Assembly: GCF_004364315.1 (NCBI RefSeq)
Contig: NZ_SOBR01000007.1
Coordinates: forward strand, 62,001 to 126,000
Direction of reading: 5' to 3'
DNA from: Chromohalobacter marismortui
Lineage (GTDB): Bacteria > Pseudomonadota > Gammaproteobacteria > Pseudomonadales > Halomonadaceae
Length of the DNA stretch: 64,000 nucleotides
The notes beneath the pieces were generated by a model. That model did not search any database and was not told where the DNA came from. It saw nothing but the letters and a program-made list of their open reading frames with translations. Positions 36,241-58,222 of the stretch are shown piece by piece. The first letter of the stretch is position 1, and the number at the start of each line of letters is the position of its first letter. A program made the position numbers and the translations under genes.

Positions 36241-37695
<1,455 letters not shown>

Positions 37696-40112: not shown

Positions 40113-40113
40113 G

Positions 40114-40425: not shown

Positions 40426-40491
40426 GACACCTTCCTCCTCTGTCGGATACGCGGCATTGTAACGTTTCCCGCCGCGGGGAATAAGCATCGC

Positions 40492-41871
40492 TCACGCCTT
40501 GACGCGCGCCAGCGGAATCCGCCACACGCTGAGCGCCAACGCCACCACCACACTGGCGCAGCCCAGCCATAACGCATACGACAGCGACCCCCAGGAAAGG
40601 GCCAGCATCAGCCCCACGCAAGCGGTTCCCAAGGCCTGGCCGAACGTACGCACCGAGGCCAGCACGCCCGACGCGTTGGCGCTATAGGTCAACGCCACGC
40701 TGCCGATCATCTCGCGATTGTTGGGCGCCTGGAACAACCCATAGCCGACCCCGCATAATACCGCGCGCCAGGCGATCGACATGGCGCTGGACTCGGCTGT
40801 CAACGTCACCAGGCTCAGCATGCCGAGCAGGAAGATCGACAGGCCCAACGACGAGATCAGCGTCGGATTGAAGCGGTCGGCGAGCCGTCCCGAGAGCGGT
40901 CCCGCCAACATCAATGCCAGTGGCCAGGGCGTGAACAACAGCGCGGCTTCGAGCGGCGTCGCCCCCATCACCGTCTGAAACATGAACGGCAACCCCACGA
41001 AGGTGATCCCCTGAGCGACGAAGGCCATCAGCGAGATCGTGGCGGCGATGCTGAAACGCGTGGCACGAAACATCGGCAGCGGTACCAGCGGCGCGGATGC
41101 CCGACGCTGACGCCACACGAACAGCACCAGGCACAGCACGCTGAGCAACAACGGCAACCAGGCACTCATGCCGCGCGCGCCATGGCCGATATGATCGAGG
41201 GAAAACACGAAGCCGCTGAGCATGGAGGCCGACAACAGGGCGCCCAGCCAATCGAATCCACGCGCCTCGATCGTCTCACGTGGTAGCGCACGAACCCCCA
41301 GGATCAAGGCCAGCAATCCCAGCGGCACATTGATGGCGAACAGCCACGGCCAGCTCGCGAAATACAGGATGATGCCACCCAGCGATGGACCGAAGGCGAT
41401 ACCAAAGGCCACCACCAGGGCACCCATGCCGATCGCCGACCCCAATAGACGCGACGGAAAGATCAGACGGTACATGGAAGGCCCGATGCTCAACATCGCC
41501 GCAGCGCCGACGCCTTGCAGCACGCGCGCTGCCACCAACCATTCGAAACTGCGCGACAACGCGCAACACAGCGAGGCCAGCACGAACAGCGCCAGCCCGC
41601 CCAAGTAAAGACGTCGCCGGCCAATGAGCCGACTCAGGGCAGCGAATCCCAACAACAGCGCCGCGCATACCAGCTGGTAGACATTGGTGACCCATACCAC
41701 GCGCGATTCATTCACCGAGAGTTCATCGGCAAGCGTCGGTAGCGCAATATTGACAATGCCGTTGTCGAGCACCGACATCAGCGTCCCCAACACCATCACC
41801 AGCATCGCCAGGCGGCGCTGCGGACCGGGCAAGCCTTCGTCACCGGGACGTGTCACGAACAAACGCTTCAT
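40492..41871 (-). CDS. MFS transporter, DHA2-like drug/efflux family
   Basis: 459-residue inner-membrane protein with 12-14 hydrophobic segments. It has the DHA2-style opening LGTLMSVLDNGIVNIALPTLA (motif D1 region) and the loop 2-3 motif LIGRRRLYLGG, pointing to a proton-driven exporter of the EmrB/QacA type. Substrate cannot be told. Start ATG 41871 (MKRLFVTRPGDEG) follows the best ribosome-binding context; 31 in-frame upstream codons look non-coding. It lies upstream of bolA on the same strand. Confidence 0.85.
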   Translation of the reverse strand: MKRLFVTRPGDEGLPGPQRRLAMLVMVLGTLMSVLDNGIVNIALPTLADELSVNESRVVWVTNVYQLVCAALLLGFAALSRLIGRRRLYLGGLALFVLASLCCALSRSFEWLVAARVLQGVGAAAMLSIGPSMYRLIFPSRLLGSAIGMGALVVAFGIAFGPSLGGIILYFASWPWLFAINVPLGLLALILGVRALPRETIEARGFDWLGALLSASMLSGFVFSLDHIGHGARGMSAWLPLLLSVLCLVLFVWRQRRASAPLVPLPMFRATRFSIAATISLMAFVAQGITFVGLPFMFQTVMGATPLEAALLFTPWPLALMLAGPLSGRLADRFNPTLISSLGLSIFLLGMLSLVTLTAESSAMSIAWRAVLCGVGYGLFQAPNNREMIGSVALTYSANASGVLASVRTFGQALGTACVGLMLALSWGSLSYALWLGCASVVVALALSVWRIPLARVKA

Positions 41872-41979
41872 CAGCACGTTACCACACTCCCCTCGCGTGG
41901 CGACGTGCTTTTCGCGCAGCGACGCACCGGCCTCTCGAGCGCGCTGAGCACCGCCCCTCGACACCGCTCACCGAAGGCT

Positions 41980-42366
41980 TCAATCCTCGTCGGTTTCGAG
42001 GAGCAATTCGTCGTCTATCTCGGAAATCTCGAGCGGCACTTCGTCATCGAGATCCAGCGCCAGATAGCTGTGCTCGACGATGAGAAATTGCTCAAACAGC
42101 GCCCACCCGAGCGGCTCCGGCCACTGACGTGCATCTTCTTCCCAAGCACTCAGCTCATTTTCGAGCAGATCGAGATGACGCTCGCGAACGTAGGCCGCCA
42201 GCGCCTCGGGCGTATCCATTTCGGGAATGAGATAGACGGTGCTTTCCCGCGCGACATCCTCGAGCGTCAGATCGTCCTCACCGACGGTGGGCTCCAGCGA
42301 GTTGATCCAGTCAACGAACGCCTGGGTCGGCTTGACGCTCAGCGCGGAACGATTGAGCAGCTTCAT
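41980..42366 (-). CDS. Acidic conserved hypothetical protein
   Basis: 128 residues, strongly acidic (long runs of Asp and Glu, ending ELLLETDED), no signal peptide or membrane segment. The opening MKLLNRSALSVKPTQAFVDWINSLEP is reminiscent of a small uncharacterised family in Pseudomonas and Halomonas, from recall. I do not recognise a function. Start ATG 42366 has AGAGGT upstream. High acidity fits a soluble cytosolic protein of a halophile. It lies between the MFS gene and lysS on the minus strand, with a repeat element upstream. Confidence 0.75.
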   Translation of the reverse strand: MKLLNRSALSVKPTQAFVDWINSLEPTVGEDDLTLEDVARESTVYLIPEMDTPEALAAYVRERHLDLLENELSAWEEDARQWPEPLGWALFEQFLIVEHSYLALDLDDEVPLEISEIDDELLLETDED

Positions 42367-42481
42367 CGGTGTTACCTCTTTTTGGGAACCGCCCGGAGTC
42401 GGCGGAATTCGAACCGCAGCCATTATGGGCGCTCGACGCGCCCCTGACCAATAACTCTTGTCCGGCTTCGCCGGGAGTTAT

Positions 42482-42627
42482 AAGCCGCAAGCTTTAAGCT
42501 GTAAGCCCCCCAAGGTCAACACCGATGGCTTTGAGCGGCGAGACGATAGCATTTTGCTTTTCGTGGCCCGTGGCTCGTCGCTATAGATTTTGACCTTTCT
42601 TCCAACTTACGGCTTCTGACTTACAGC
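42482..42627. repeat. Heptamer-arm inverted-repeat element A
   Basis: Left arm: AAGCCGC, AAGCTTT, AAGCTGT, AAGCCCC in perfect 7-bp register (42482-42509), then CAAGGTCAA. Right arm (about 42592-42627) reads, on the minus strand, GCTGTAA GTCAGAA GCCGTAA GTTGGAA and ends in AAAGGTCAA. The core between them contains more 7-bp periodicity (minus strand AGCCACG GGCCACG). It lies just past the lysS stop. Confidence 0.7.
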
Positions 42628-42645
42628 ACTGGGCGAAGCCCGGCA

Positions 42646-44148
42646 TTATTCCGGGCGCATCGCCGGGAACAACAGCACATCACGAATCGAGGGACTGTCG
42701 GTGAGCAGCATCACCAGACGGTCGATACCGATCCCCTCGCCCGCCGTCGGCGGCAGGCCGTACTCCAATGCGCGGACATAATCGGCATCGTAGTACATGG
42801 CTTCCAGATCGCCGGCGTCTTTCTCCGCCGCCTGCTCGGCGAAGCGCTCGGCCTGATCCTCGGCATCATTGAGCTCGGAGAAACCGTTGGCGATCTCGCG
42901 GCCACCGACGAAGAACTCGAAACGGTCGGTGACGTGAGGGTTGGTGTCGTTGCGCCGCGCCAGCGGGCTGACCTCGGCCGGATATTCGGTAATGAATGTC
43001 GGCTGTTCGAGCTTTTCCTCGGCGACGTGTTCGAATATCTCGGTCTGCAGCTTGCCCAGGCCCCAGCTCGCCTTGAGCGGAATTCTCAAACGCTCGCAGG
43101 TTGCCTGGGCGCCCTCGAAGGTATCGATGTCGCTTTCGCTGATACCGTCACCGTATTCCAGAATGGATTGACGCAGGGTGAGGCGCTGGAAGGACTCGCC
43201 CAGGTCGTAGCGTGTTCCCTGGTAGTCGATGGTGGTCGTGCCCAGCACGTCGCGCGCGACCTCGCGAATCATCGCCTCGGTGAGGTCGAGCAGGTCACGG
43301 TAATCGGCATAGGCCCAGTAGAATTCGAGCATGGTGAACTCGGGATTGTGACGCGTCGACAACCCCTCGTTACGGAAGTTGCGATTGATTTCGAAGACGC
43401 GCTCGAAACCGCCGACGACCAGACGCTTGAGATACAACTCCGGCGCCACGCGCAGGTACATGTCGATATCCAGCGCGTTGTGGTGCGTGACGAAGGGCCT
43501 AGCCGTGGCGCCGCCGGGGATCTGCTGCAGCATCGGCGTTTCGACTTCCATGAAGCCGCGCTCGACCAGGAAACGCCGAATGCCGCTGATCACCCGCGAA
43601 CGCACCTCGAAGACGCGCCGCGACTCGGGGTTCATGATCAAGTCCACATAGCGCTGGCGATAGCGCGCTTCGGTGTCGGTCAAACCATGGAATTTGTCCG
43701 GCAGGGGGCGCAGGCTCTTGGTCAGCAGCCGCGCCTCCCCCATCATCACGTAAAGATCGCCCTTGCCGGACTTGTGGACCGGGCCACGCGCCGCGACGAT
43801 ATCGCCGATGTCCCAGCTCTTGACGTCCTCCAGCACCTCGGCAGGCAGGCCTTTCTTGTCGACATACAGCTGTATCTGGTCGGAAACGTCCTGAATGACG
43901 ATGAACGGCCCACGCTTGCGCATGATGCGTCCGGCGACCGCGGCCTGACGATCGAGCGTTTCCAGCTCGGCCTTGTCCTTGTCGCCCAACTCGGCCTGTA
44001 ATTCGGCGGCGAGACTATCGCGACGAAAGTCGTTGGGGAAAGCGCTACTGCCCGCTTCCGCCGCTTGGTCGCGGCGTGCCGCCAACTTGGCACGGCGCTC
44101 CGCGATCAGATGATTCTCGTCGTGCTGAGAGGAGTCTTGGTTGGCCAT
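42646..44148 (-). CDS. lysS: Lysyl-tRNA synthetase (class II)
   Basis: 500-residue class II synthetase. It has an N-terminal OB-fold anticodon-binding domain (about 60-160), motif 2 [20 protein letters not shown] and motif 3 [19 protein letters not shown] near the C-terminus. Start ATG 44148 ([19 protein letters not shown]). In related bacteria it directly follows prfB; here the two are still neighbours on the minus strand, but 173 bases with a repeat element intervene. Confidence 0.97.
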
Positions 44149-44173
44149 GTCGTTACCTGTAAAGAATAAAAGA

Positions 44174-44292
44174 AAGCTGGAAGCCGGAAGCTAGAAGCTA
44201 GAAGCTAGAAGCCAAGATCAAACCACCACGCCACAATCACTCAACGGCTTTTGAAGCTTGACGTTTGATCTTGCTTCCCTCTTACAGCTTCC
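44174..44292. repeat. Heptamer-arm inverted-repeat element B
   Basis: Left arm AAGCTGG, AAGCCGG, then AAGCTAG three times and AAGCC (44174-44213), ending in AAGATCAAA (44214-44222). After a 41-base core the exact complement TTTGATCTT (44264-44272) opens a facing right arm GCTTCCCTCTTACAGCTTCC. It sits between prfB and lysS. Confidence 0.8.
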
Positions 44293-44321
44293 AGGCACGA
44301 AGTGCCGCTCTTCAGGCTTTC

Positions 44322-45420
44322 TTAAAGCCCCTGCTTCAAGCTGGCTTCGATGAACTGATCCAGATCGCCATCAAGCACTTTCTCGCAGTTACTGGACTGC
44401 ACACCGGTGCGCAGATCCTTGATGCGCTGATCATCGAGGACGTAGGAGCGGATCTGACTGCCCCAGCCGATATCCGACTTGCTGTCCTCGGCTTCCTGCT
44501 TGGCAGCATTGCGCTTGTCCATTTCCAGTTCCCACAATTTCGCGCGCAGTTGCTTCATGGCGAAATCGCGGTTGGCGTGCTGACTGCGCTGGCCCTGGCA
44601 GGCAACCACGATACCGGTGGGCTCGTGGGTGATGCGCACCGCCGAATCGGTGGTGTTGACGTGCTGACCGCCCGCCCCGCTGGAACGATAGGTATCGACG
44701 CGTAGATCGGACGGATTGATCTCGATCTCGAAGTTGTCGTCGATTTCCGGCGACAGGAACACCGAGGCAAACGACGTATGCCGGCGGCCACCGGAATCGA
44801 ACGGGCTCTTGCGCACCAGGCGGTGCACGCCGGTTTCGGTGCGCAGCCAGCCGAAGGCGTAATCGCCTTGAATGTGCAAGGTCGCCGACTTGATGCCCGC
44901 CACATCGCCGCTGGACAATTCGATGATGTCGGTCTTGAAGCCGTGATGTTCGCACCAGCGCAAGTACATGCGCAGCAGCATGTTGGCCCAATCCTGGGCT
45001 TCGGTACCACCGGAACCGGCCTGGATGTCAAGATAGGTGTTATTGGCATCCATCTCGCCGGCGAACATGCGCCGGAACTCGAGCTTGGCAAGCTGGGACT
45101 CGAGCTTGTCGAGTTCGCTCCTCACTTCGTCGACGGTGGCGTCGTCCTCTTCCATCACCGCCAGCTCGAGCAGTTCCTGATGATCCGTCAGGCCCCGCTC
45201 CAGCGTGTCGAAGGTCTCGACGATCGCCTCCAGAGTGGCGCGCTCCTTGCCCAGCGTCTGCGCGTAGTCCGGGTCGCTCCAGACGTCCGGGTTTTCCAGT
45301 TCGCGGGTGACTTCCTCTAGCCGTTCTTTTTTGGCGGCATAGTCAAAGATACCCCCTCAGGACGTCTGTCCGTTCGGACAGGTCCTTGATGAGGTGATTG
45401 ATCGGGTTGATCTCTTGCAT
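44322..45420 (-). CDS. prfB: Peptide chain release factor 2, made by +1 programmed frameshift
   Basis: Terminates translation at UGA and UAA. The start is ATG 45420; 25 codons are read to CTT (45348-45346), an in-frame TGA follows, and the ribosome skips one base (45345) to continue with GAC. The joined product is 365 residues, the same as E. coli RF2. The slippery site CTT-TGA-C is preceded by the internal Shine-Dalgarno AGGGGG. Downstream the specificity tripeptide SPF (RKSPFDSGG) and the catalytic GGQ (GAGGQHVN) are intact. The frameshift autoregulates RF2: low RF2 favours slipping. Neighbour lysS is on the same strand. Confidence 0.97.
45342..45357 (-). promoter_or_regulatory. RF2 programmed +1 frameshift site
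   Basis: Minus-strand AGGGGGTATCTTTGAC: an internal Shine-Dalgarno-like AGGGGG, three-base spacing, then CTT and the in-frame UGA followed by C, a poor termination context. It is the canonical arrangement in bacterial prfB. Confidence 0.95.
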
Positions 45421-45610
45421 GGGAATCCTTTGCAGGCGCGCTGATTCGCACCGCAGCGGCATGCTTGCCGGCAACGCGGTGAAGAAAAGAGACACATTGT
45501 AGCCAATGCACCCGCGAGCGGCTATCCCATGCGCCATCTCGGTGTCGTTCATGAGTGTCCTATCGAATATCTGAAAAAGCATATACGAAATTTGCAATGG
45601 ACAGGTTTCG

Positions 45611-46057
<447 letters not shown>

Positions 46058-46270
46058 GCCCGTCCCGTAAGCGCCCTTGCAAGCGACATGCCTGCGCGGC
46101 TGAATGCGCCTGTCTTAACACAGGCTAAATACATGGTGTCGGCAGCGGCGTAGCCTCGCCAAGGTCGACAGCCAGTCAACGACGGTGTTGTCGATGCCGA
46201 CCTATCCGGCTATTTTTATGCATGGACAGTAGCGATTTTATTTCAAAGCAGACTAATGGAGGAGTTTGCA
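46058..46270 (+). promoter_or_regulatory. ectD upstream region with possible structured leader
   Basis: 213 bases without a gene. A hairpin GCCTGT-CTTAAC-ACAGGC (46108-46125) comes first. From 46138 to 46201 the sequence can fold as a three-way junction: GTCGGCA (46138-46144) pairs with TGCCGAC (46195-46201), GGCG with CGCC (46147-46150, 46157-46160), and TCGACA with TGTCGA (46165-46170, 46189-46194). The right strands of the first and third helices abut. AGGAG precedes the ectD ATG at 46271. Promoter position is not certain, so whether this is transcribed is unknown. Confidence 0.4.
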
Positions 46271-47176
46271 ATGAAAGAGACTCAAGATCTGTTCCCGACG
46301 CGCCTGGAGCGCAAACTGGGCATGTTCGAGCGCATCGACCCGGTCGTGCATAGCGAAGGCGAGCAACGCAAGGGGCCGCTCAGCGAGGCCGAACTCGACG
46401 AGTTCGACCGCAAGGGCTTCCTCTCCTTCGAGGGCTTCTTCGACGAAGACGAGATGGCCTCGTTCCTCGAGGAACTCCGCGATTACGAGAAAGATGACGA
46501 TCTCAAGCTCTCCGAAGGCACCATCCTCGAGCCCGGCAAGCAGGAGATCCGTTCGATCTTCGGGATCCACGAGGTGTCCGAGCGCTTCAGCCGGCTGACG
46601 CGCGATCCGCGCCTGCTGGCGATGGTCCAGCAGATCCTCGGGGGTGATGTCTATATTCATCAGTCGCGGATCAACTACAAGCCCGGCTTCAAGGGCAAGG
46701 GCTTCGACTGGCACTCCGATTTCGAGACCTGGCACAGCGAGGACGGCATGCCGCGCATGCGCTCGGTGAGCTGCTCGATCATTCTCACCGAAAACGGCGA
46801 GTTCAACGGCCCCTTGATGCTGGTGCCCGGCTCGCACCATTATTTCGTGCCTTGCGTGGGCCGTACGCCGGAGGACAACTACAAGGAATCCTTGAAGAGC
46901 CAGGATATCGGCGTACCGGACGATGCCAGCCTGCGCGACTTGATGATCAAGGGCGATATCGAAGCGCCCAAGGGGCCCGTCGGTTCGCTGGTGATGTTCG
47001 AGTGCAACACCCTGCATGGCTCGAACATCAACATGTCGTGCTGGCCACGCAGCAACCTGTTCTTCGTCTACAACAGCGTCGAGAACACGCTGCACAACCC
47101 GTATTGCGGCAATCGCCCCCGGCCCGAGTTCCTGGCCAACCGCAAGGACTGGCGCCCCCTCAAGCCTGTCGAATGA
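46271..47176 (+). CDS. ectD: Ectoine hydroxylase EctD
   Basis: Fe(II)/2-oxoglutarate dioxygenase that converts ectoine to 5-hydroxyectoine, a compatible solute for salt and heat stress. The 301 residues contain the EctD signature FDWHSDFETWHSEDGMP with iron ligands H148 and D150, the distal iron ligand H249 in NTLHGSN, and R260 as the likely 2-oxoglutarate ligand. The start at ATG 46271 is favoured because ATGGAGGAG serves as its Shine-Dalgarno; an in-frame ATG five codons upstream lies within it. It stands alone, away from any ectABC genes, and is convergent with the fadL-like gene across a strong hairpin. Confidence 0.96.
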   Translation: MKETQDLFPTRLERKLGMFERIDPVVHSEGEQRKGPLSEAELDEFDRKGFLSFEGFFDEDEMASFLEELRDYEKDDDLKLSEGTILEPGKQEIRSIFGIHEVSERFSRLTRDPRLLAMVQQILGGDVYIHQSRINYKPGFKGKGFDWHSDFETWHSEDGMPRMRSVSCSIILTENGEFNGPLMLVPGSHHYFVPCVGRTPEDNYKESLKSQDIGVPDDASLRDLMIKGDIEAPKGPVGSLVMFECNTLHGSNINMSCWPRSNLFFVYNSVENTLHNPYCGNRPRPEFLANRKDWRPLKPVE

Positions 47177-47241
47177 GGGCTTGAACAACATCGAGGGCCA
47201 CCCTCGACAGTGACATCGCCCTAGGCTAGGCCCCGGCCTGC

Positions 47242-47276
47242 AACGACGAATCCCGGCATTGCCGGGATTCGTCGTT
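47242..47276. terminator. Bidirectional hairpin between ectD and fadL-like gene
   Basis: Perfect 16-bp stem, AACGACGAATCCCGGC (47242-47257) with its complement (47261-47276), loop ATT. It lies midway between convergent genes and ends in GTT. Confidence 0.8.
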
Positions 47277-47308
47277 ATAGAGCGCACTTGGGCGCTGTCA
47301 TTGTCGAC

Positions 47309-48646
47309 TCAGAAGCTATAATCCATCGACAGCGCGAACACATCGGCCTCGACTTCATAGGTCCCGGAGAGGTTGCCACGGCTGGCATTCTCGTTGGTCG
47401 GCGTGGCGTTCTGATCGATATCGCCATCGTCACCGAAGACGTGCATGTAACCCACTGTCACGCCCAGGTTCGAGGTCGGCATCCAGGTCGCCCCGAGCGT
47501 CGCCCAGCGGCGATCGGCATCGGGTACACGCGGCGTGCGGTGCTCGCTGTCCGGCACCGGCGATTCGTCGACCCCCAGGCCGGCGCGCAGCAACCACTGC
47601 GGATTGAGCCGATAGTTGGCGCCCACCGAGAAGGCCCAGGTATCGTCCCAGTTTTCGGTCGTGGTGCTCAATTCGCGACCACCGGACTCGACGGTGAGCT
47701 CCTTGAAGCTGCTCCACTCCGTCCACTCGGCATTGGCCATCAAGGCGAGCCGGTCGGTCAACTGATGATAGATCCCCAGGTTGAGGTTGGCCGGCGTGGT
47801 CAGCTCCGCCTTGCCGCCGCCGTCTTGCAGACCCGAGACTGCCAGCACCTGCTGACCGACGGGATCGTCGGAGCTGTAGTCGACATTACCGTCCAGCGTC
47901 AGCTCGACCTCCGAGCGATAGCTGATCCCCAGGCGAGTGCGCTCGGTGGCCTGGAACAGCGCCCCCAGGGTGTAGCCGTAGCCCCAGTCATCGCCGGTCA
48001 CCTCGGCCATTCCGTCATTAGCACCCGGCGCGGCACCAGGGACGCCTGCCAAAGCTCCCTGCCCACCCAGATCGATGGCGTTGGAGAGCGTGGCATCGGC
48101 ATACTGGGCACGCAGTCCCACGGCCAAGTTGAGACGGTCGGTGGCGCGATAGTTCAGCGTCGGCTGGATATCGATGGTCTCGAGCTCGGTTTCAACGGCG
48201 TGATAGCGCCCGATCCAATCCTCGTCGTACTTGGTGGACAGGCCATACGGCGCAGAGATCGCCAGCCCCACATCGAAGCGTTCACTCAGGCGCGTCTTGA
48301 AGGCGAAACTGGGCACCCAGGCCTCCTCGCCCCCTTCGTTATTGCCACTTCCCGTGTAAGTGGCCCCGGTGACGGAGCTCGCCGAGGCGTCGGTCAACTC
48401 GAAGCCGGCATCGATGTAGGAAATGCCACCGGCGACTTGCGTCCCCTCGACATTACCGATGGCCGCCGGGTTGTAGGTCATGTAGCTGACATCCTCGGCA
48501 CCGGCCGCCGCCCCGGCCATGGCGTTCCCCAGTGCCTTGGCGCTCTGTTCTCTGACCTGAAAACCCGACGCAGCGGCCTGACCGGACGCCATCACGGCGG
48601 ATGCCAAGGTCACGGCGACGGTGAGCTTATTGATGTTGTTATGCAT
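47309..48646 (-). CDS. Outer-membrane transport protein, OmpP1/FadL family
   Basis: 445-residue beta-barrel protein for uptake of long-chain fatty acids or other hydrophobic molecules. A signal peptide (hydrophobic about 9-20, cleavage near AAA-SGFQ at 27) is followed by the FadL N-terminal hatch (GFQVREQSAKALGNAMAGAAAGAED has NPA-type YNPAAIG next), alternating strand patterns, and a C-terminal aromatic residue (DYSF) needed for barrel assembly. GAGGA precedes the start. It is a lone gene upstream of a 314-base spacer. The substrate may be a hydrocarbon or aromatic rather than a fatty acid. Confidence 0.9.
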   Translation of the reverse strand: MHNNINKLTVAVTLASAVMASGQAAASGFQVREQSAKALGNAMAGAAAGAEDVSYMTYNPAAIGNVEGTQVAGGISYIDAGFELTDASASSVTGATYTGSGNNEGGEEAWVPSFAFKTRLSERFDVGLAISAPYGLSTKYDEDWIGRYHAVETELETIDIQPTLNYRATDRLNLAVGLRAQYADATLSNAIDLGGQGALAGVPGAAPGANDGMAEVTGDDWGYGYTLGALFQATERTRLGISYRSEVELTLDGNVDYSSDDPVGQQVLAVSGLQDGGGKAELTTPANLNLGIYHQLTDRLALMANAEWTEWSSFKELTVESGGRELSTTTENWDDTWAFSVGANYRLNPQWLLRAGLGVDESPVPDSEHRTPRVPDADRRWATLGATWMPTSNLGVTVGYMHVFGDDGDIDQNATPTNENASRGNLSGTYEVEADVFALSMDYSF

Positions 48647-48960
48647 GAAAACGTCCTCTTATACGGCGACGTGGAGGCGAAAATTGTCTTAGGTTTTTTA
48701 CCCTTGCCCGAATGATGGCGTGCCTCTTCGTTTTGGCCGATGGGCGTTTTCAAGTCAAGGGCAAACGTTTGTTTTAATCTCGGAAACGCTCATTCTTTAG
48801 TCTTATAAGAAGCCCCTCATCTGACCTTTTTCAGGACATGAGGAGTACTTCTTCAATGATTTCAGTTTTTTATCGCAAGGAAGTGAAAACAGGCCAGGAT
48901 CGCCTTGACCTTTGTGTTACACAAAGGTTCTAGACTTCTCTCGTCATTCAGGAGGATGCC
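48647..48960. other. 314-bp divergent spacer between the fadL-like gene and the merR-copA operon
   Basis: AT-richer than its surroundings and holding both promoters. Besides the MerR-type promoter at 48905-48936, it contains a 10-bp palindrome TCTTATAAGA (48801-48810) and an interrupted hairpin with arms CCTCAT (48815-48820) and ATGAGG (48838-48843). I see no ORF or RNA gene. Confidence 0.6.
48905..48936 (+). promoter_or_regulatory. MerR-type operator-promoter of merR-copA
   Basis: -35 TTGACC (48905-48910) and -10 TAGACT (48931-48936) are 20 bp apart, longer than the normal 17. A perfect 9-bp dyad ACCTTTGTG / CACAAAGGT (48908-48916, 48920-48928; centre TTA) fills the spacer. That is the layout of promoters that MerR-family activators unwind in response to metal. 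Confidence 0.88.
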
Positions 48961-49398
48961 ATGAAAGTCAGCGATCTGGCCCGCGCCGCCGACGTCACCG
49001 GCGAAACGGTTCGCCATTACACACGCGAGGGATTACTGCATCCGCAACGCGATCCCGACAACGGCTATCAACTCTATGGCGCCGACGACCTCAATCGCCT
49101 GCGTTTCATACAACGCGCTCGCACGCTGGGGTTCAGTCTTCGTGAGGTGCGCGAGATTCTCGAGCATGCCGACCATGGCGACTCGCCATGCCCCATGGTG
49201 CGCGACCTGCTGGCCGAACGCTTGCCGGAAATTCGGTCGCGCATCCGTGAGTTGCAGGCCCTGGCGACACGCATGGAGCGCGCCCTGGAGACCTGGCGCG
49301 ATATGCCGGATGGCACGCCCGACGGCCATAGCTTGTGCCGGCTGATCGAGAGCCTGCCGATGGAAAGTGACGACGGTTTTGCACGCCAGGCGCCATGA
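48961..49398 (+). CDS. MerR-family metal-responsive regulator (CueR-like)
   Basis: 145-residue activator with a winged helix-turn-helix ([23 protein letters not shown], residues 4-26), dimerisation coiled coil and a metal-loop region containing C79 (DSPCPM) and C122 (HSLCRL). The spacing of the cysteines is not the classic CueR C-x7-C, so metal specificity is inferred from the neighbour: its stop overlaps the copA reading frame and it shares the operon with this copper ATPase. It likely senses Cu(I) or Ag(I) and switches on its own promoter. Confidence 0.85.
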
Positions 49399-49421
49399 GC
49401 TCTGCCGAAGGAGAACGCAAG

Positions 49422-51997
<2,576 letters not shown>

Positions 51998-52001
<4 letters not shown>

Positions 52002-52075
52002 GCATCATCGTCAATCTGATCGGGCTGGCATTGATCGCCGGCATCGTCTGGTGGTTCTGGCTATCGCCACGTTGA
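51998..52075 (+). CDS. 25-residue membrane micropeptide coupled to copA
   Basis: The ATGA overlap with the copA stop and the GGGAGG Shine-Dalgarno before it strongly suggest translation. The peptide, [20 protein letters not shown] followed by WLSPR, is a single membrane helix with a tryptophan-rich end and a basic tail. It resembles, from recall, the N-terminal anchor of membrane-tethered cupredoxin-like proteins seen after copA in other bacteria, but the cupredoxin part is missing: the stop comes right after the helix. It may be a regulatory or assembly peptide for CopA, or a truncated remnant. Confidence 0.6.
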
Positions 52076-52135
52076 GGTCATTGCCCCGAGATGGCTATGC
52101 TGGAAGGCATCGCGTCGCGGCAAACGAGGAGTGAT

Positions 52136-52555
52136 ATGCCACGCATTCAAGGCGTTCTCGAAACCGCCCTCTACGTCACCGACATGGCCCGCGCCCGGGC
52201 CTTCTTCGAGAACGTGATGACGCTGACGGCCTTTACCGCCGATCACCGCTTCACCGCTTACGAGGCCGGGCCAGGCAGCGTATTGCTACTGTTTCAACAA
52301 GGCAGCACCCAGGAAACCGTGCACCTGCCGCAGGGTATGGGCACCATACCGCCCCACGACGGTGCCGGACGCGTGCATCTGGCGCTGGCCATCGCCCGCG
52401 ACGCGCTGGACGACTGGGAAGCCCAGCTCACTGCCCACGACATTCCCATCGAAGGCCGTACCCACTGGCCAAAAGGCGGTGAGAGCCTCTATTTCCGCGA
52501 CCCCGACGGCCACCTTCTGGAACTGGCCACGCCCGGCGTCTGGCCGAATTACTAA
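52136..52555 (+). CDS. VOC (glyoxalase/dioxygenase-like) family protein
   Basis: 139-residue protein with one VOC fold: ALYVTDMARARAFFENVM at the start, HLALAIARDALDDWEAQL in the middle and SLYFRDPDGHLLELATPG at the end with a conserved metal-binding glutamate. Such proteins include glyoxalase, fosfomycin-resistance enzymes and dioxygenases; none can be chosen here. Start ATG 52136 has GAGGAG upstream; an ATG 15 codons earlier lacks one. It is convergent with recJ, across a heptamer repeat region. Confidence 0.85.
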   Translation: MPRIQGVLETALYVTDMARARAFFENVMTLTAFTADHRFTAYEAGPGSVLLLFQQGSTQETVHLPQGMGTIPPHDGAGRVHLALAIARDALDDWEAQLTAHDIPIEGRTHWPKGGESLYFRDPDGHLLELATPGVWPNY

Positions 52556-52556
52556 T

Positions 52557-52721
52557 CAAGCTGGAAGAGCGCCGCTGCGCGGCTGGAAGAAGGAAGAACG
52601 GCGCTTTGCGCCTGGCAGAAACCCCAGGAAGAAGAATCGTTCTAGCTTCTAGCTTCTAGCTTCTAGCTTCTTCCCTCTTCCCTCTTCCCTCTTCCCTCTT
52701 CCCTCTTCCCTCTTCCCTCTT
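52557..52721. repeat. Heptamer repeat element C with (CTCTTCC)n microsatellite
   Basis: Four exact TTCTAGC units (52640-52667), one TTCTTCC, then six exact CTCTTCC units (52675-52716) and a partial CTCTTA that contains the recJ stop codon. A shorter facing arm on the left reads AAGCTGGAAG (52558-52567), with further purine-rich stretches. On the minus strand the right arm reads (GGAAGAG)n then (GCTAGAA)n, immediately after recJ. Confidence 0.9.
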
Positions 52722-54516
52722 AAACAGGCTCGGCGTGCTCGATCATCAACTGCAACGACTCACGCCCCCGCCATCGGTTGCGTGACAGCTTGTAGGCACA
52801 ACGCAGGCGATCGCCGAGGCCGAACGGCGGCAACTCGCCAGGCGTCAGGGCACGAAACCAGATCGCCTTGAGGCTCGCTGCGCCACACGAGAGCTCGAGC
52901 ATCAGATGGTTACCCTCGGCACCCACCGGACGTAGTTGCTCGATGCGAAACTCGCCGTCGAACAGCGGGGCGTCGAACTCGCGACCGTAAGGCGCCAAGC
53001 GTGCCAACTCATCCACCGCCGCCAGTGACAACTGCTCGGGCAGCAAGGTGCCGTCGGTGAGCACATAAGGAAACAGGTCGCGGCCACCGAGTTGTTCTTC
53101 GACCGCCGTAAGAAAGGCCTCGCGAAATGACGCCAGCCGCTCGCGCGGTACGCCGATCCCCGCCGCCCCCCGGTGGCCCCCGAAACGGGGCAATGCCTCG
53201 GGCGCCAGCTCATGCGCGCGCTGCAATGCGTCTCGCAAGTGCAGCCCTTCGATGGAACGTCCCGAGCCGGTCAGCATGCCCGGCGCGGCGGCCGGCGTCA
53301 GCACCAGCGTGGGGCGCCCGAAGGCCTGGACCAGACGCGAGGCGACGATACCCTGCACGCCGGCATGTCCTTCCTCCAGGAAGACCACGACCGCCGAGGC
53401 ACCCTCGGACAAGGCGTCGAGCGCCAATGTCCGGGCGCTCTCGACCATGTCCGCCTCGATCGCCTTGCGTGACTGGTTGTCGGTATCCAGCACCTCGAGG
53501 TGACGCCGTGCCGTGGCATCGTCGGCGGCGAGCATGAAATGCAGCGCCGCGTAAGGGTCGTCGAGACGCGAGCGCGCGTTGATGCGCGGCCCCATCTGAA
53601 AGGCCAGGGTTTCGGCATCGAAGGGCACGCTGTCGTCCCCCAGTCGCTCGGCCATGACCCGCCAGCAGGCGGCGTCCATGCGGTTGATCAACGTCAGCCC
53701 GTGGCTGACCACGGCACGGTTGGCGGGACTCGCCCCCAGCGAGACGCAATCCGCCACGGTGCCGAGTGCCACGTACGACAGCCATGGCGACAGTTTGGGA
53801 GTCGAGGGCGCGGCCACGCCCTGCTCGATGAGCACCGAGCGTGTCAACGACATGGTCAGCCATGCCACCATGCAACCCGCAATGGTGGGATCCGGGTAGT
53901 CGCAATCGCTGCGCGTGGGATTGACGGTGGCGTACGCCGATGCCGGTGGCCCCGCCGTCGGCAAGGCATGGTGGTCGGTGACCACGACATCGAGCCCCGC
54001 CTCGCGCAGGCGCGCGATACGCGGCTCGTCGGAGCTGCCACAGTCGGCGGTGATCACCAGACGGGGGCGTGGTGACAACGCCAGGGTGCGCTCCACCAGC
54101 GGCAGGCTGATACCGTAGCCATCGAAGATACGATGCCCGATCAAGCTGTGCAGCTTGTGCATCGGCACGCCGAACAGCTCGTTCAGGGTCCGCAGGATGA
54201 CCACGTGCGAGGTGATACCGTCGACGTCGTAGTCGGTGAGAATGCCGATGTGCTCGCCTTCGGCCACCGCCAGGGCGATCCGTTCGGCGGCACGGCGCGC
54301 ATCCTGCAGCCGTTCGGGGTGCGCCAGATAGCGCAGGCTGGGGTCGATCAGCGACGCGATATCGTCCGTGTAGTCGTGCAGACGCCCGGCCAGTATCCGC
54401 GCCTGTAGTTCGCTGAGCCCGGCCGACTGTGCGCGGCGGTAGACATCCTCATCACGCGGACGTGACAGGATGCGACGGTTCAGCAGGGGGGGCGGATCGT
54501 GCTCGGCGACTGACAC
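52720..54516 (-). CDS. recJ: Single-stranded-DNA-specific exonuclease RecJ
   Basis: 5'-to-3' exonuclease in recombination and mismatch repair. The 598-residue DHH-family protein has ILTDYDVDGITSH (motif I), ITADCG, VVTDHHALPT (DHH motif) and the C-terminal DHHA1 motif GGHRGAAGIGV. GTG at 54516 is the best start: GAGGAG sits six bases upstream, whereas ATG 54549 and further upstream readings lack a good site. The stop codon lies inside the flanking repeat tract. It follows thrC on the minus strand. Confidence 0.94.
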   Translation of the reverse strand: MSVAEHDPPPLLNRRILSRPRDEDVYRRAQSAGLSELQARILAGRLHDYTDDIASLIDPSLRYLAHPERLQDARRAAERIALAVAEGEHIGILTDYDVDGITSHVVILRTLNELFGVPMHKLHSLIGHRIFDGYGISLPLVERTLALSPRPRLVITADCGSSDEPRIARLREAGLDVVVTDHHALPTAGPPASAYATVNPTRSDCDYPDPTIAGCMVAWLTMSLTRSVLIEQGVAAPSTPKLSPWLSYVALGTVADCVSLGASPANRAVVSHGLTLINRMDAACWRVMAERLGDDSVPFDAETLAFQMGPRINARSRLDDPYAALHFMLAADDATARRHLEVLDTDNQSRKAIEADMVESARTLALDALSEGASAVVVFLEEGHAGVQGIVASRLVQAFGRPTLVLTPAAAPGMLTGSGRSIEGLHLRDALQRAHELAPEALPRFGGHRGAAGIGVPRERLASFREAFLTAVEEQLGGRDLFPYVLTDGTLLPEQLSLAAVDELARLAPYGREFDAPLFDGEFRIEQLRPVGAEGNHLMLELSCGAASLKAIWFRALTPGELPPFGLGDRLRCAYKLSRNRWRGRESLQLMIEHAEPV

Positions 54517-54584
54517 GAATGACTCCTCGGGGGACGGCGGATGGTACATCGGGGCGTCGCGGATCACTACGACGCCCCGCAACG

Positions 54585-55973
54585 TCAGCGGCGCTGTTCA
54601 GCGACGAAAGCCTGCACGGCTTCAAGCTCGGCCGGCAGCACGGTGTAGCGCTCTTCACGCTCGAGCAAATCGGTCATGTGCGCGGGCAACGGCACGCTCT
54701 CGAAGCCTGCCTTGATCACGGCATCGGCGAACTTGGCCGGATGCGCGGTCGCCAGGGTGATCATCGGAGTGGAGATATCCGCGCGAACACGCTCGGCGGC
54801 GCGATAGCCGGTCGCGGTGTGCGGATCGAGCACCTCCTTGGTACGCCCATGTGCGTCGCGAATCACCTCGAGGATGGTGTCGTCATCCACGCTGTGGCTG
54901 ACGAATTTCTCGCGCAGCCTTGCCAGCGGCGCCTCGGCGAGTACCGCCGGTTCGTGCTGGAAACGTTCGAGCAAATCGCGCACAGCGTCACCGTCGCGGT
55001 CATAGGCCTCGAACAGCAAGCGTTCGAAGTTCGACGACACCACGATATCCATCGACGGTGCCAGGGTCGCCTTGAGCGCCTGCTTGGAGAAGTCGTTGTC
55101 GGCCAGGGTGCGATGCAGGATGTCATTGGCATTGGTCGCCACGACGAACTGCTTGACCGGCAGTCCCATGCGATGCGCCACGTAGCCGGCGAAGACATTG
55201 CCGAAGTTGGCCGACGGCACGCAGAAGCTCACCTCGCGGCGCGGCGCGCCCAGGGCCACCGCAGAGGCCACGTAATAGACCACCTGCGCCATGATGCGCG
55301 CCCAGTTGATGGAATTGACCGCCACCAGGCGCGTGCCGTTCAGGAACCCTTGATCGGCGAAGCTTGCCTTGACCATCGCCTGGGCATCATCGAAATCGCC
55401 TTCGATGGCGATATTGAAGACGTTGTCGGCCAGCACCGACGTCATCTGGCGGCGCTGCACTTCCGAAACGCGGTTATGCGGGTGCAGGATGAAGATATCG
55501 AGATTGTCGCAATGCCGACAGCCTTCGATCGCCGCCGATCCGGTATCCCCGGACGTCGCGCCCATGATCACCGCCCGCTCACCACGCTTGGCCAGGAAAT
55601 GATCGAGGATGCGCCCCAGCAACTGCAGGGCGACGTCCTTGAACGCCAGGGTCGGGCCATGGAACAACTCGAGCAGGAAATGATTGCTCGACAGCTGGTT
55701 GAGCGGCACCACCGCTTCATGACTGAAGGTCGCGTAGGCGTCTTCCACCAGGTGCTGGAAGGTCGCGTCATCGATCTCCCCGCCCACGAACGGCTTCATC
55801 ACCCGGAATGCGATCTCGGCATAGGACAGCCCCGCCATCGCCTCGAGTTCCGCCTGCGAGAGGGTGGGGATCGTTTCCGGCACGTACAGGCCGCCATCGG
55901 ATGCCATGCCGGTCAGCACGACCTCCTCGAAACTCAGTGCCGGCGCTTCGCCGCGCGTACTGATATAACGCAT
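54585..55973 (-). CDS. thrC: Threonine synthase
   Basis: PLP enzyme that converts O-phosphohomoserine to threonine. The 462 residues start MRYISTRGEAPALSFEEVVLTG, with the PLP lysine in GPTLAFKDVALQ (about residue 117) and phosphate-binding ATSGDTGSAAIEG. It lies after hom on the minus strand, 111 bases away, with repeat element D in the gap. The hom-thrC pair makes threonine from aspartate semialdehyde together with a homoserine kinase encoded elsewhere. Confidence 0.96.
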   Translation of the reverse strand: MRYISTRGEAPALSFEEVVLTGMASDGGLYVPETIPTLSQAELEAMAGLSYAEIAFRVMKPFVGGEIDDATFQHLVEDAYATFSHEAVVPLNQLSSNHFLLELFHGPTLAFKDVALQLLGRILDHFLAKRGERAVIMGATSGDTGSAAIEGCRHCDNLDIFILHPHNRVSEVQRRQMTSVLADNVFNIAIEGDFDDAQAMVKASFADQGFLNGTRLVAVNSINWARIMAQVVYYVASAVALGAPRREVSFCVPSANFGNVFAGYVAHRMGLPVKQFVVATNANDILHRTLADNDFSKQALKATLAPSMDIVVSSNFERLLFEAYDRDGDAVRDLLERFQHEPAVLAEAPLARLREKFVSHSVDDDTILEVIRDAHGRTKEVLDPHTATGYRAAERVRADISTPMITLATAHPAKFADAVIKAGFESVPLPAHMTDLLEREERYTVLPAELEAVQAFVAEQRR

Positions 55974-55990
55974 GCTTCACTCCGTGAGTG

Positions 55991-56053
55991 GCGAGCTTCG
56001 AGCCGCGGGCTCCGAGCTGTCGTTGCTCGAAGCTCGCGGCTCGTCACTCGAAG
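55991..56053. repeat. Heptamer-arm inverted-repeat element D
   Basis: Left arm CGAGCTT, CGAGCCG, CGGGCTC, CGAGCTG in 7-bp register (55992-56019). The facing right arm (56025-56053) reads on the minus strand CGAGTGA CGAGCCG CGAGCTT CGAGCAA. A perfect 13-bp pairing joins GCGAGCTTCGAGC (55991-56003) and its complement (56025-56037). It lies between thrC and hom. Confidence 0.75.
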
Positions 56054-56084
56054 CCACTTGTTATAGCACCCCGAAACCGGCGCT

Positions 56085-57407
56085 TTATTCCTGCTCGTCG
56101 AGGTCTTCGACACGAATCCGCGTCACCGGACCGGCGATATCGGCCAGCGATTCGAGCTGACGAATCACTTCATTCATGTGCTGCTCGCGGGTGCGATGCG
56201 TCATCAGGATGATGGGCACCAACTCACCTTCGGTGGCTTCCTTCTGGATGATCGCCTCGATGGAAATGCCTTGCTCGGAGAGGATCGTCGCTACCCGCGC
56301 CAGCACGCCCGGACGATCCACCGCCAGCAGCCGCAGGTAATAAGCGGTGACGATGTCTTCCATGGGCAGGACCGGCAGCGAGCCGTCGGCCTCGTCGATG
56401 CCGCTGAAGGCGAGATACGGCACGCGGTAATGGTGCTCGGTGGTGATGTCGCGGGCCACGTCGAGCAAATCGGCGACCACCGCCGAGGCCGTGGGCTCGG
56501 CCCCCGCGCCGGCGCCATAATAAAGCGTCGGCCCCACCGCATCGCCCATCACGGCAATGGCGTTCTTCACGCCATGCACGCTGGCCAGCAGGCGTTCCTT
56601 GGGGATCAACGTCGGATGCACGCGAAGCTCGAGGCCTTTTTCGGTGCGCTTGGAAATCCCCAGATGCTTGATGATATAGCCCAGTTGATCGGCTTGCTCG
56701 ACATCATCCGCCGTGACCCGCGAGATGCCTTCCGTGTAGGCCTTGTCGAACTGCAGCGGCACACCGAAGGCGATCGACGCCAGGATGGTCAGCTTATGAG
56801 CGGCGTCGATGCCTTCGACATCGAAGGTCGGGTCGGCTTCGGCATAGCCCAGCGCCTGCGCCTCGGCGAGCACGTCGTCGAAGGCACGGCCTTCATCGCG
56901 CATATGGGTCAGAATGTAGTTGCCGGTGCCGTTGATGATACCGGCAAGCCATTGAATGCGATTGGCGCCCAGTCCTTCTCGCAGCGATTTGATCACCGGG
57001 ATGCCGCCGGCCACGGCCGCCTCGAAGGCCACGATCACGCCTTTTTCGTGTGCGGCCTGGAAGATCTCGTTGCCGTGTACGGCGATCAGTGCCTTGTTGG
57101 CAGTGACGACGTGCTTACCGTTCTCGATGGCGGTCATCACCAGCTCACGAGCCACATCGTAGCCACCGATCAACTCGACCAGCACATCGACATCGGGATT
57201 GCGTGCCACCTCGAAGACGTCACGGGTGACCTTGACCCCGGCGGTCTCGCATTGCGGGTTATCGCGACGCGTACCGACTTGCTCGACGATAATCGGTCGA
57301 CTGGCGCGACGGGCGATATCGTCCGCATTGCGCGTCAACACATTGAAGGTACCGCCACCCACGGTCCCTAGCCCACAGATACCTACTCTCACCGGTTTCA
57401 ACGTCAC
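56085..57407 (-). CDS. hom: Homoserine dehydrogenase
   Basis: NAD(P)-dependent reduction of aspartate semialdehyde to homoserine, the branch point to threonine and methionine. The 440-residue enzyme is the monofunctional type: Rossmann motif VGICGLGTVGGGTFNVL, catalytic GIINGTGNYILTHM and a C-terminal ACT domain (about 355-430, LLAVDRPGVLARVATIL) through which threonine usually inhibits it. It lies between dsbC and thrC on the minus strand. Confidence 0.96.
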   Translation of the reverse strand: MTLKPVRVGICGLGTVGGGTFNVLTRNADDIARRASRPIIVEQVGTRRDNPQCETAGVKVTRDVFEVARNPDVDVLVELIGGYDVARELVMTAIENGKHVVTANKALIAVHGNEIFQAAHEKGVIVAFEAAVAGGIPVIKSLREGLGANRIQWLAGIINGTGNYILTHMRDEGRAFDDVLAEAQALGYAEADPTFDVEGIDAAHKLTILASIAFGVPLQFDKAYTEGISRVTADDVEQADQLGYIIKHLGISKRTEKGLELRVHPTLIPKERLLASVHGVKNAIAVMGDAVGPTLYYGAGAGAEPTASAVVADLLDVARDITTEHHYRVPYLAFSGIDEADGSLPVLPMEDIVTAYYLRLLAVDRPGVLARVATILSEQGISIEAIIQKEATEGELVPIILMTHRTREQHMNEVIRQLESLADIAGPVTRIRVEDLDEQE

Positions 57408-57441
57408 GCTCCCCTTGCTCAGTGTATGTGTCCAGCGAGCC

Positions 57442-57460
57442 TCCGGCGCCTGACGCCGGA
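57442..57460 (-). terminator. Short hairpin between dsbC and hom
   Basis: Perfect 7-bp stem TCCGGCG / CGCCGGA with a CCTGA loop in the 77-base gap after dsbC. No T run follows, so partial termination or mRNA protection is more likely than a full stop. Confidence 0.4.
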
Positions 57461-57484
57461 AGCGATCGTATTATCGTCGGTCGC

Positions 57485-58219
57485 TCACGGTTGGATGCCC
57501 AGCATCGACGCCAAGCGCTCGGCCGGCACGTATCCCGGCACCATGCGGCCATCCGGCAGCATGATCGCGGGCGTGCCTCGAATGCCCAGCTCCATCCCCA
57601 ACGCGTGCTGTTCGGCCACCGCTGCCTCGCACTGCGCCGTGCTCTTTGGCGCATCGCCTCGCATCGCAGCGGTGAGGGCCTCGGAGGCATTGTCCGCGCA
57701 CCACACCTGGCTCATCACGCGTGCCGCCTTGGAGTCGACACCCGCACGCGGAAAGGCCAGATAGTCTACCTCGATTCCCATCCGATTGAGACGGGGAACG
57801 TCCTCATGCAATTTTTGGCAATAAGGACATGAAGTATCGGTAAAGACAGTGATGCGCGCCTTAACCTCGCCGGCAGGCTTGTAGATGACGCGCTCCTCCT
57901 CGGGAATCGCAGCGAGACGCGCCTGGCGACGTTCGTTGGCGGCACGCTGGGTCAAGTTGACCATCCGTCCATCGTGGTTACGATACAGGTCACCGACCAC
58001 CATGTACTCCCCGTCGGCGTCCGTATAGAACGTATCGCCGCCTTTGAGGCGGACTTCATAGAGCCCCGGAAGCGGCGACTCCTCGATCGACGCCACCGGC
58101 ATCGGCTGCCCATTGTGGGTTAGCTTGTCGGCCAATCCCTCGGGCGGCGCGGCGACGCTGAGTGGCGCGACCAGGAGGGCCAGAGCGCCTCCCATGACGG
58201 ACAATACGACTCTAGACAT
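57485..58219 (-). CDS. dsbC: Periplasmic thiol:disulfide isomerase DsbC
   Basis: 244-residue precursor with a signal peptide (hydrophobic 5-20, cleavage near VAA at about 24), an N-terminal dimerisation domain and a thioredoxin fold with active-site CPYC (C131, C134) and cis-proline loop GIRGTPAIMLP. It repairs wrong disulfides in the periplasm, kept reduced by DsbD. A second cysteine pair (C173 and C192 region, WCADN and QCEAA) is structural. It follows xerD by three bases, an arrangement conserved in gammaproteobacteria. Confidence 0.94.
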   Translation of the reverse strand: MSRVVLSVMGGALALLVAPLSVAAPPEGLADKLTHNGQPMPVASIEESPLPGLYEVRLKGGDTFYTDADGEYMVVGDLYRNHDGRMVNLTQRAANERRQARLAAIPEEERVIYKPAGEVKARITVFTDTSCPYCQKLHEDVPRLNRMGIEVDYLAFPRAGVDSKAARVMSQVWCADNASEALTAAMRGDAPKSTAQCEAAVAEQHALGMELGIRGTPAIMLPDGRMVPGYVPAERLASMLGIQP

Positions 58220-58222
58220 TGA

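What the first reader, a model, noticed from the sequence alone, without database searches (positions are those of the whole stretch)
42482..56053. A family of heptamer-armed inverted-repeat elements, four copies confined to the xerD-lysS block
Seen directly: at about 42.48, 44.17, 52.56 and 55.99 kb, intergenic sequence has a strict 7-bp period with an AGC(T/C) core (AAGCTAG, AAGCCGC, CGAGCTT, and GCTAGAA read from the minus strand). In at least three of the four, a second arm with the complementary repeat faces the first across a 5-80 base core, so each could fold into a long hairpin. Elements A and B share a boundary AAG(A/G)TCAA at the inner end of both arms. Unit sequences differ between loci but the period and core do not, as if the elements evolve by slippage within a conserved architecture. 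None carries a gene. I know no named family of this kind in gammaproteobacteria. Heptameric intergenic repeats are known in cyanobacteria, but those are unrelated as far as I can tell.
Basis: partly seen in the sequence, partly recalled or inferred. Interest (0 to 1): 0.75.

Follow-up and report, generated by a model that had tools for sequence, protein, structure and literature searches.

The report
Seven-base-repeat hairpins linked to S23
Four gene-free hairpins built from seven-base repeats look like stripped-down copies of a widespread element that elsewhere carries a small gene known from the 'intervening sequences' of ribosomal RNA, which may explain why seven-base repeats are so common in bacterial genomes.

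Summary
In detail: A, B, C and D are intergenic, period-7 and foldable. They are not confined to this block: one unit type alone has 12 further places in this genome, and 143 of 275 family genomes have it. Where an array has a partner, the purine arm is always first: 27 of 27 partnered, 42 arrays examined. Copy number and unit change between congeners at the same site. None of 24 classified sites lies between divergent genes, against 23 of 62 background gaps.

The key lead lay outside the window: one such element here encloses an S23 / 23S-rRNA-intervening-sequence-protein gene (PF05635). Of 69 S23 loci (Halomonadaceae, plasmids, viral contigs) 52 have inverted flanks and 50 have period-7 arms; of 78 control genes, 1 and 0. 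An rRNA intervening sequence (IVS) with S23 also has inverted ends, heptameric repeats and RNase III excision (PMC4990558).

Best reading: A-D are gene-less members of a dispersed IVS-like, S23-associated hairpin element evolving by slippage. RNase III processing and mobility are inferred. Ten literature searches listed no report of the link.

The parts
42482..42630 (.). Element A, between the lysS stop and the next gene on the minus strand; nested: outer AAGC arms, AAGGTCAA inner boundaries, inner GAGC-type heptamers
   Evidence: sequence; TRF score 31; fold z -2.96; orthologous nested elements in G004 and G006
42482..42519 (+). A, purine arm with AAGGTCAA boundary at 42512-42519
42590..42628 (+). 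A, pyrimidine arm with boundary TTGACCTT at 42590-42597
44168..44313 (.). Element B, between prfB and lysS (same direction)
   Evidence: orthologs in six congeners with copy-number change
44174..44221 (+). B, purine arm (AAGCTAG units) with AAGATCAA boundary at 44214-44221
44265..44293 (+). B, pyrimidine arm with boundary TTGATCTT at 44265-44272
44288..44313 (-). B, REP-like hairpin module H (GAAGAGC, 5-bp stem, TNY loop, TGGAAG)
   Evidence: G000:C7:106288-106313
52556..52721 (.). Element C, between two convergent genes; abuts both stop codons
52564..52618 (+). C, purine side: two H modules in tandem (the second with two mismatches)
52640..52721 (+). C, pyrimidine arm: TTCTAGC x4.6 then TCTTCCC x7.6
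   Evidence: copy number varies among congeners
55985..56062 (.). Element D, between hom and thrC (same direction); GAGCNNC-type heptamer palindrome
   Evidence: fold z -6.0; an element in the same joint in all 10 genomes of the genus, of another type in two

Best explanation
A-D are gene-less members of a dispersed class of S23-associated, IVS-like hairpin elements. Full versions consist of a purine-rich arm of tandem heptamers, a gene for the S23 / 23S rRNA-intervening-sequence protein (a four-helix-bundle protein), and a complementary pyrimidine-rich heptamer arm. The elements sit between genes, often in the joint of two neighbours that read the same way. Shown: the anatomy, the arm polarity, the link of S23 genes to such arms in several phyla, copy-number and unit turnover, absence from divergent spacers in the sites examined, and empty, gene-less and gene-bearing states at one kind of gene joint. 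Inferred: in the transcript the two arms pair into a long double-stranded stem that RNase III cuts, as in rRNA IVSs, so that the element drops out of the mRNA without harming its neighbours; S23 recognises the arms and serves spread or processing; arm units change by slippage of 7-nt units.
For: (1) S23 ORF (PF05635, E 5e-32) inside a heptamer-armed element of this genome. (2) 69 non-duplicate S23 loci (30 Halomonadaceae, 21 plasmid, 18 IMG/VR): inverted flanks above the 99th percentile of shuffles in 52 of 69; period-7 score >=12 in 50 of 69, with 7 the best of periods 4-13 in all 50. Controls: genes under 1 kb in stretches of this genome, 1 of 78 and 0 of 78; flanks taken 700-1000 bp away, 6 of 30 at the 95th percentile and 4 of 42 at the 99th. 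(3) On the S23 strand the upstream arm is purine-rich in 44 of 52, pyrimidine-rich in 3, neither in 5. The same order holds for gene-less arrays, 27 of 27 partnered of 42. (4) cysD-cysN joint in the genus: empty with overlapping stop/start in 6 genomes, gene-less element in 2, S23 in a cys operon of 6, five of which also have one of the former joints. (5) Sites: 16 co-directional, 8 convergent, 0 divergent of 24, against 32/7/23 of 62 background gaps. (6) Outside genus g10, S23-positive genomes more often carry AAGC arrays: 64 of 69 against 67 of 124. (7) IVS of PMC4990558: 28-bp inverted ends, RNase III excision, two or three direct heptameric repeats before S23p. Gene-less rRNA IVSs are known: five of seven species in PMC2672173 (passages).
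Against: (1) A-D carry no S23 gene; 4 of the 10 genomes of the genus have arrays but no PF05635 match, as have 67 genomes outside g10. (2) 17 of 69 S23 loci lack a significant inverted flank, and some arms are of period 8 or 9 (L395, L396, L398, L421). (3) PMC4990558 holds that its S23p is probably not made and that the IVS RNA matters more, which speaks against an active role of the protein there. (4) The elements are in mRNA spacers, not in rRNA. (5) No RNA data: RNase III cleavage is untested. No target-site duplication or movement was shown. (6) D-stem covariation did not exceed shuffles (3 pairs with two-sided change; 112 of 500 shuffles as high). (7) The genome-level S23/array association is not corrected for kinship, and the control genes come from this genome only. 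(8) Most S23 calls outside Halomonadaceae rest on tblastn and record annotation; NCBIfam was run on three S23 proteins.
Confidence: 0.6

Rival explanations
1. Plain heptanucleotide microsatellites that grow by polymerase slippage in non-coding DNA, with no element behind them.
For: Copy number changes freely between congeners; heptanucleotides are reported as the most abundant class of 5-11 nt repeats in most genomes and slippage was proposed for them (PMC4679880 passages; PMC4692102 discussion).
Against: Slippage alone gives no facing partner, no fixed order (27 of 27 partnered), no shared AAGC core at unrelated loci, and no attachment to S23 genes (50 of 69 against 0 of 78).
Confidence: 0.1
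2. A REP/BIME-like or MITE-like palindromic repeat mobilised by a Y1 (RAYT) or other transposase, with S23 merely a frequent passenger.
For: A 26-bp hairpin module recurs (16 copies with a paired stem among 25 pattern hits; 33 of 44 distinct genus copies fully paired against a shuffled mean of 13.9). The siting between co-directional and convergent genes is the one reported for REPs (PMC3733652 abstract). One of five Y1 loci of the genus has a GTAG-tagged palindrome nearby (L308).
Against: No PF01797 match in this genome, and in only 3 of 10 of the genus; the module shows no GTAG tag and is absent from the five Y1 loci; S23 loci in unrelated hosts have arms of different units.
Confidence: 0.15
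3. Bidirectional transcription terminators or mRNA 3'-end stabilisers kept by selection, with interchangeable sequence.
For: Convergent sites are enriched (8 of 24 against 7 of 62, p 0.03). The hom-thrC and prfB-lysS joints carry an element in all 10 genomes of the genus although its type changes. Arms bracket a terminator at L065 and L316.
Against: Strict terminators in only 3 of 27 element gaps against 8 of 39 background gaps; B and D lie between genes of one direction that look like operons; other genera have short joints without an element (L092, L093, L096, L099, L101).
Confidence: 0.15

Closest known systems
rRNA intervening sequence (IVS) with S23p ORF, as in PMC4990558
   Same: Terminal inverted repeats that fold into a stem; S23-family ORF in the full version; direct heptameric repeats of variable number next to the ORF; gene-less forms exist (PMC2672173 passages).
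   Different: Here in spacers between protein genes, many copies per genome, heptamer arms on both sides; RNase III excision not tested.
GGGAATC heptameric repeats of Xanthomonas and GGGGAYT repeats of Nostoc (PMC4692102)
   Same: Period 7, mostly intergenic, rare between divergent genes, convergent pairs (70 and 75 cases in two Xanthomonas genomes), strong length variation.
   Different: Units here are AAGCYNS / GAGCNNC rather than G-run units; only a few pairs were seen in Nostoc; that paper's text has 0 occurrences of S23 or four helix.
REP elements (PMC3733652: abstract, one section, passages)
   Same: Short extragenic palindromes in co-directional and convergent spacers; the 26-bp H module looks like one.
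   Different: No GTAG or CGTC tag on the module; no Y1 transposase match in this genome; heptamer arms.
DGR accessory protein Avd
   Same: Weak sequence kinship to S23 (NF033474 E 9.5e-06 and 5.3e-05 for two of three S23 proteins, both below its cut-off); PMC10053308 notes the resemblance (passages).
   Different: Reverse transcriptase and template/variable repeats were not looked for around these elements.

Membership tests
rRNA intervening sequence (IVS) | inserted within a 16S or 23S rRNA gene | tested here: not met
   A-D lie between protein genes; no Rfam match at 40000-58500
rRNA intervening sequence (IVS) | terminal complementary repeats forming a stem | tested here: met
   folds; arms of partnered arrays face each other, 27 of 27
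rRNA intervening sequence (IVS) | S23p ORF (present in part of known IVSs) | tested here: inconclusive
   absent from A-D; present in one element of the same genome; S23 loci elsewhere mostly have such arms
rRNA intervening sequence (IVS) | excised by RNase III | not testable with these tools
   needs RNA from wild type and an rnc mutant
S23-associated heptamer-armed element (as defined here) | period-7 arms, inverted, purine arm first | tested here: met
   B and C by strict scan, A by TRF, D by sequence and fold; order
REP (GTAG/CGTC) elements | GTAG or CGTC tag at the foot of the stem | tested here: not met
   H module reads GAAGAGC...TGGAAG
REP (GTAG/CGTC) elements | RAYT (Y1 transposase) in the genome, flanked by the repeat | tested here: not met
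   0 PF01797 matches in this genome, 3 of 10 in the genus; no H module at those five loci
Intrinsic terminator | GC stem followed by T run | tested here: not met
   none of A-D; 3 of 27 element gaps against 8 of 39 background gaps
Xanthomonas/Nostoc G-rich heptameric repeats | GGG-containing heptamer able to form quadruplexes | tested here: not met
   main units AAGCTAG, AAGCCGC, GAGCTTC; the GAGGGAA part of C alone has a G run
MITE | target-site duplication and a transposase acting in trans | not tested
   an empty joint is available at cysD-cysN but no duplication analysis was made

The most novel reading that the evidence does not exclude
The unexplained excess of seven-base repeats in bacterial genomes is largely the footprint of one very widespread selfish RNA-hairpin element. 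Its arms are tandem heptamers of almost any sequence, arranged purine arm first; its only gene is S23; it lives in mRNA spacers and occasionally in rRNA, where it was named IVS; and S23 (kin to the retroelement protein Avd) measures or binds the 7-nt arms and drives their growth or spread.
Probability: 0.4. Interest if true: 0.92.

Novelty: new variant of a known kind. Interest (0 to 1): 0.8.

Why it matters
Heptameric repeats are over-represented in many bacterial genomes, and in the best-studied cases their role 'remains to be elucidated' (PMC4692102 discussion). S23 proteins have no known function (PMC4990558 introduction). Linking the two gives both a concrete, testable setting: a gene, its two flanking arms, empty sites in close relatives, and a predicted nuclease. 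It would also mean that IVSs are the rRNA-resident minority of a much larger class.

Tried and rejected
- RAYT link: not supported for this genome, although one of five Y1 loci of the genus has a GTAG-tagged palindrome (L308).
- Terminator reading: not enriched, although single sites bracket a terminator (L065, L316).
- Covariation of the D stem: not above shuffles; rows G007 and G001 are out of register by one unit in the alignment.
- Intrastrand triplex motif (PMC4666352, outline and passages): the published motif differs; not pursued.
One is Chromohalobacter beijerinckii, which suggests but does not prove the genus. Not used for counts.
- Sequence-string literature search: the 20 listed of 72 papers are primers and unrelated work.
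- Phage records: no S23 match.
- Rows dropped: viral near-duplicates L403, L404, L407, L408, L417 and L423 were left out (L380 and L381 are L400 and L401). Before that, on all 45 plasmid and viral loci gave 33 of 45 inverted and 31 of 45 period-7. Of 39 plasmid records matched I fetched 18 loci, besides the 3. Of the PF05635 places the 30 loci that the tool kept (best-scoring, one per genome) were used. In one search the S23 loci of G002 and G007 were cut short by my fetch and G003 was not found by my motif, so 3 of 6 genus loci were assessable. One search missed G004 at the C site; one search read it.
- The stretches used were partly chosen because they hold arrays, and background partners were counted for one arm type only.
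- Gene names (lysS, prfB, hom, thrC, recJ, cysD, cysN) are recalled from the proteins, not from a call.
Full report
1. What is in the window. Four intergenic tracts, A (42482-42630), B (44168-44313), C (52556-52721) and D (55985-56062), have period-7 repeats and facing complementary arms. A strict period-7 scan of the window finds only B and C, and 10 order-3 Markov simulations have none; A and D are degenerate. As RNA, D folds far better than shuffles (z -6.0), A and B clearly (-2.96, -2.90), C (to 52705) moderately (-2.2). A and B carry AAGGTCAA or AAGATCAA at the inner end of both arms; genome-wide seven of 29 matches to that boundary pattern are in heptamer elements, namely A, B and one at C11:29.5 kb, with 10 matches for the reversed control. 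It marks a subfamily.

2. Not local. AAGCYNSAAGCYNSAAGC occurs at 14 places in this 3.55-Mb genome, 12 outside the window (those 12 were read). The reversed control pattern gives 43 matches against 68, since units such as GAAGCTC read alike backwards. Nine unselected 20-kb stretches contain no period-7 array. Four AAGC units in phase occur in all 10 genomes of the genus and in 143 of 275 genomes (17 of 24 genera) of the family (control matches are common in some of these genomes and nil in others), but in 25 of 369 sampled genomes of the class.

3. Architecture. I took each array in stretches of five genomes and looked for the opposite arm within 200 bp. Of 42 arrays, 27 had a partner, each time purine arm first; 12 had none and 3 could not be typed. 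Unselected 200-bp windows contain a pyrimidine partner in 22 of 891. A 26-bp hairpin module (GAAGAGC, 5-bp stem, 3-nt loop, TGGAAG) often sits at the outer end: 16 copies with a paired stem among 25 pattern hits in this genome. Of 94 copies in the genus, 44 are distinct, and 33 of these have a fully paired stem against a shuffled mean of 13.9 and a maximum of 25 in 2000 shuffles (the copies are related, so this is no probability).

4. Evolution at fixed sites. In the ten genomes of the genus the prfB-lysS joint holds the B-type element in 7 and a GAGC-type palindrome in 3. The hom-thrC joint holds the D type in 8 and a B-type element in 2. At C, perfect runs of GAGGGAA and GAAGCTA are: this genome 7 and 4, G001 5 and 1, G002 4 and 15, G003 1 and 0, G004 5 and 0, G006 5 and 1, G008 15 and at least 9 (the contig ends there), G005, G007 and G009 none (runs were counted in the whole recJ locus). 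So type and copy number turn over. Several other genera have short prfB-lysS joints with no element (L092, L093, L096, L099, L101). Compensatory change in the D stem did not exceed shuffles.

5. Where they sit. Of 24 sites in this genome with both neighbours called, 16 are co-directional, 8 convergent and 0 divergent; background gaps of 80 bp or more are 32, 7 and 23 (p 2e-4 for divergent, 0.03 for convergent). Genes were called with a simple codon-usage finder of my own and gap lengths were not matched. Strict terminators are not enriched: 3 of 27 against 8 of 39.

6. The gene. One element of this genome, in the cysD-cysN joint, encloses a 114-aa ORF that matches PF05635, 23S rRNA-intervening sequence protein, E 5e-32, TIGR02436 four helix bundle protein and the solved protein XCC0516 (2gsc, E 4e-13). 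In the genus a cysD-cysN joint is empty, with overlapping stop and start, in six genomes and holds a gene-less GAGC-type element in two, while six genomes have S23 in a cys operon, five of them besides one of the former joints. The flanks of three of those six S23 genes were assessable, and all three have a significant inverted repeat. PF05635 occurs in 87 of 275 family genomes. Outside the one genus (g10) whose S23 arms use other units, 64 of 69 S23-positive genomes have AAGC arrays against 67 of 124 S23-negative ones (hand-counted, not corrected for kinship).

7. The link is general. The two flanks of each S23 gene were compared with each other. First pass: 27 of 30 Halomonadaceae loci above the 95th percentile of shuffles, flanks 700-1000 bp away 6 of 30. 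On 45 plasmid and viral loci, duplicates included: 33 of 45 above the 99th percentile, distant flanks 4 of 42. On 69 non-duplicate loci: inverted flanks in 23 of 30 Halomonadaceae, 15 of 21 plasmid and 14 of 18 viral-contig loci (52 of 69); period-7 arms in 25, 12 and 13 (50 of 69), with 7 the best of periods 4-13 in all 50; upstream arm purine-rich in 44 of the 52, pyrimidine-rich in 3. Genes under 1 kb in this genome: 1 of 78 and 0 of 78. Of the 21 plasmid loci 19 are cyanobacterial, one alphaproteobacterial and one gemmatimonadotal. Arm units differ (AGTAGGG, AAAGCYA, GGGAAAA, AACGTTC and others), and a few arms have period 8 or 9. S23 stands between nrdB and nrdA, between cas6 and cas4 and between cas10 and cmr3.

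8. Known relatives. rRNA intervening sequences are inserts with complementary ends, cut out by RNase III, some with an S23p ORF; in one species two or three direct heptameric repeats precede that ORF, and the authors think the protein is probably not made (PMC4990558: abstract, introduction, discussion and passages). Heptameric repeats in two Xanthomonas genomes form 70 and 75 convergent pairs, are rare between divergent genes, vary in length, and have no known role (PMC4692102: introduction, discussion and passages). S23 and four helix occur 0 times in PMC4692102 and in PMC4679880. Ten literature searches listed no paper that makes the link; only the top of each listing was seen and only open-licence papers are held.

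9. Reading. A-D work, I think, like IVSs moved into mRNA spacers: the arms pair, RNase III would remove the insert, and the neighbours stay translatable. They fail the location criterion of IVS proper and carry no S23, so they are filed as gene-less relatives, not as IVSs. Shown: anatomy, polarity, turnover, siting, S23 linkage. Inferred: excision, binding by S23, mobility.

Noticed in passing
window 37279-37325: Perfect hexamer array CTCGGG x7.8, the only other strong short-period array in the window.
   Followed up: no
L378, L385, L390, L377: S23 genes are lodged inside CRISPR-cas operons (cas6-cas4 twice, cas10-cmr3 once) and between nrdB and nrdA of cyanobacterial plasmids.
   Followed up: partly
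L284-L286 (G417): In a genome of another gammaproteobacterial family, heptamer arms of changing unit (GAATCCA, GAGTCAG, GAGCCAG, GAAGCTA) flank a longer palindrome (GGAGCGGCCTCCAGGCCGCGAT) that resembles a REP by recall.
   Followed up: no
L395, L396, L398, L421: Some S23 arms have period 8 or 9 instead of 7.
   Followed up: no
L288-L291 (G581): Another gammaproteobacterial family has many gene-less AAGCYNC-armed elements; whether that genome has S23 was not tested beyond the fetched stretches, which have no match.
   Followed up: partly
G255:C12:17745-30252: Three S23 genes within 13 kb of one contig; the one that was read (L351) has very long heptamer arms.
   Followed up: no
L310: A gene-less element with H module lies directly upstream of a tRNA-Ala / tRNA-Glu pair.
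   Followed up: partly
L308: A Y1 transposase locus of a congener has a GTAG-tagged palindrome nearby, a REP-like trace unrelated to the H module.
   Followed up: no
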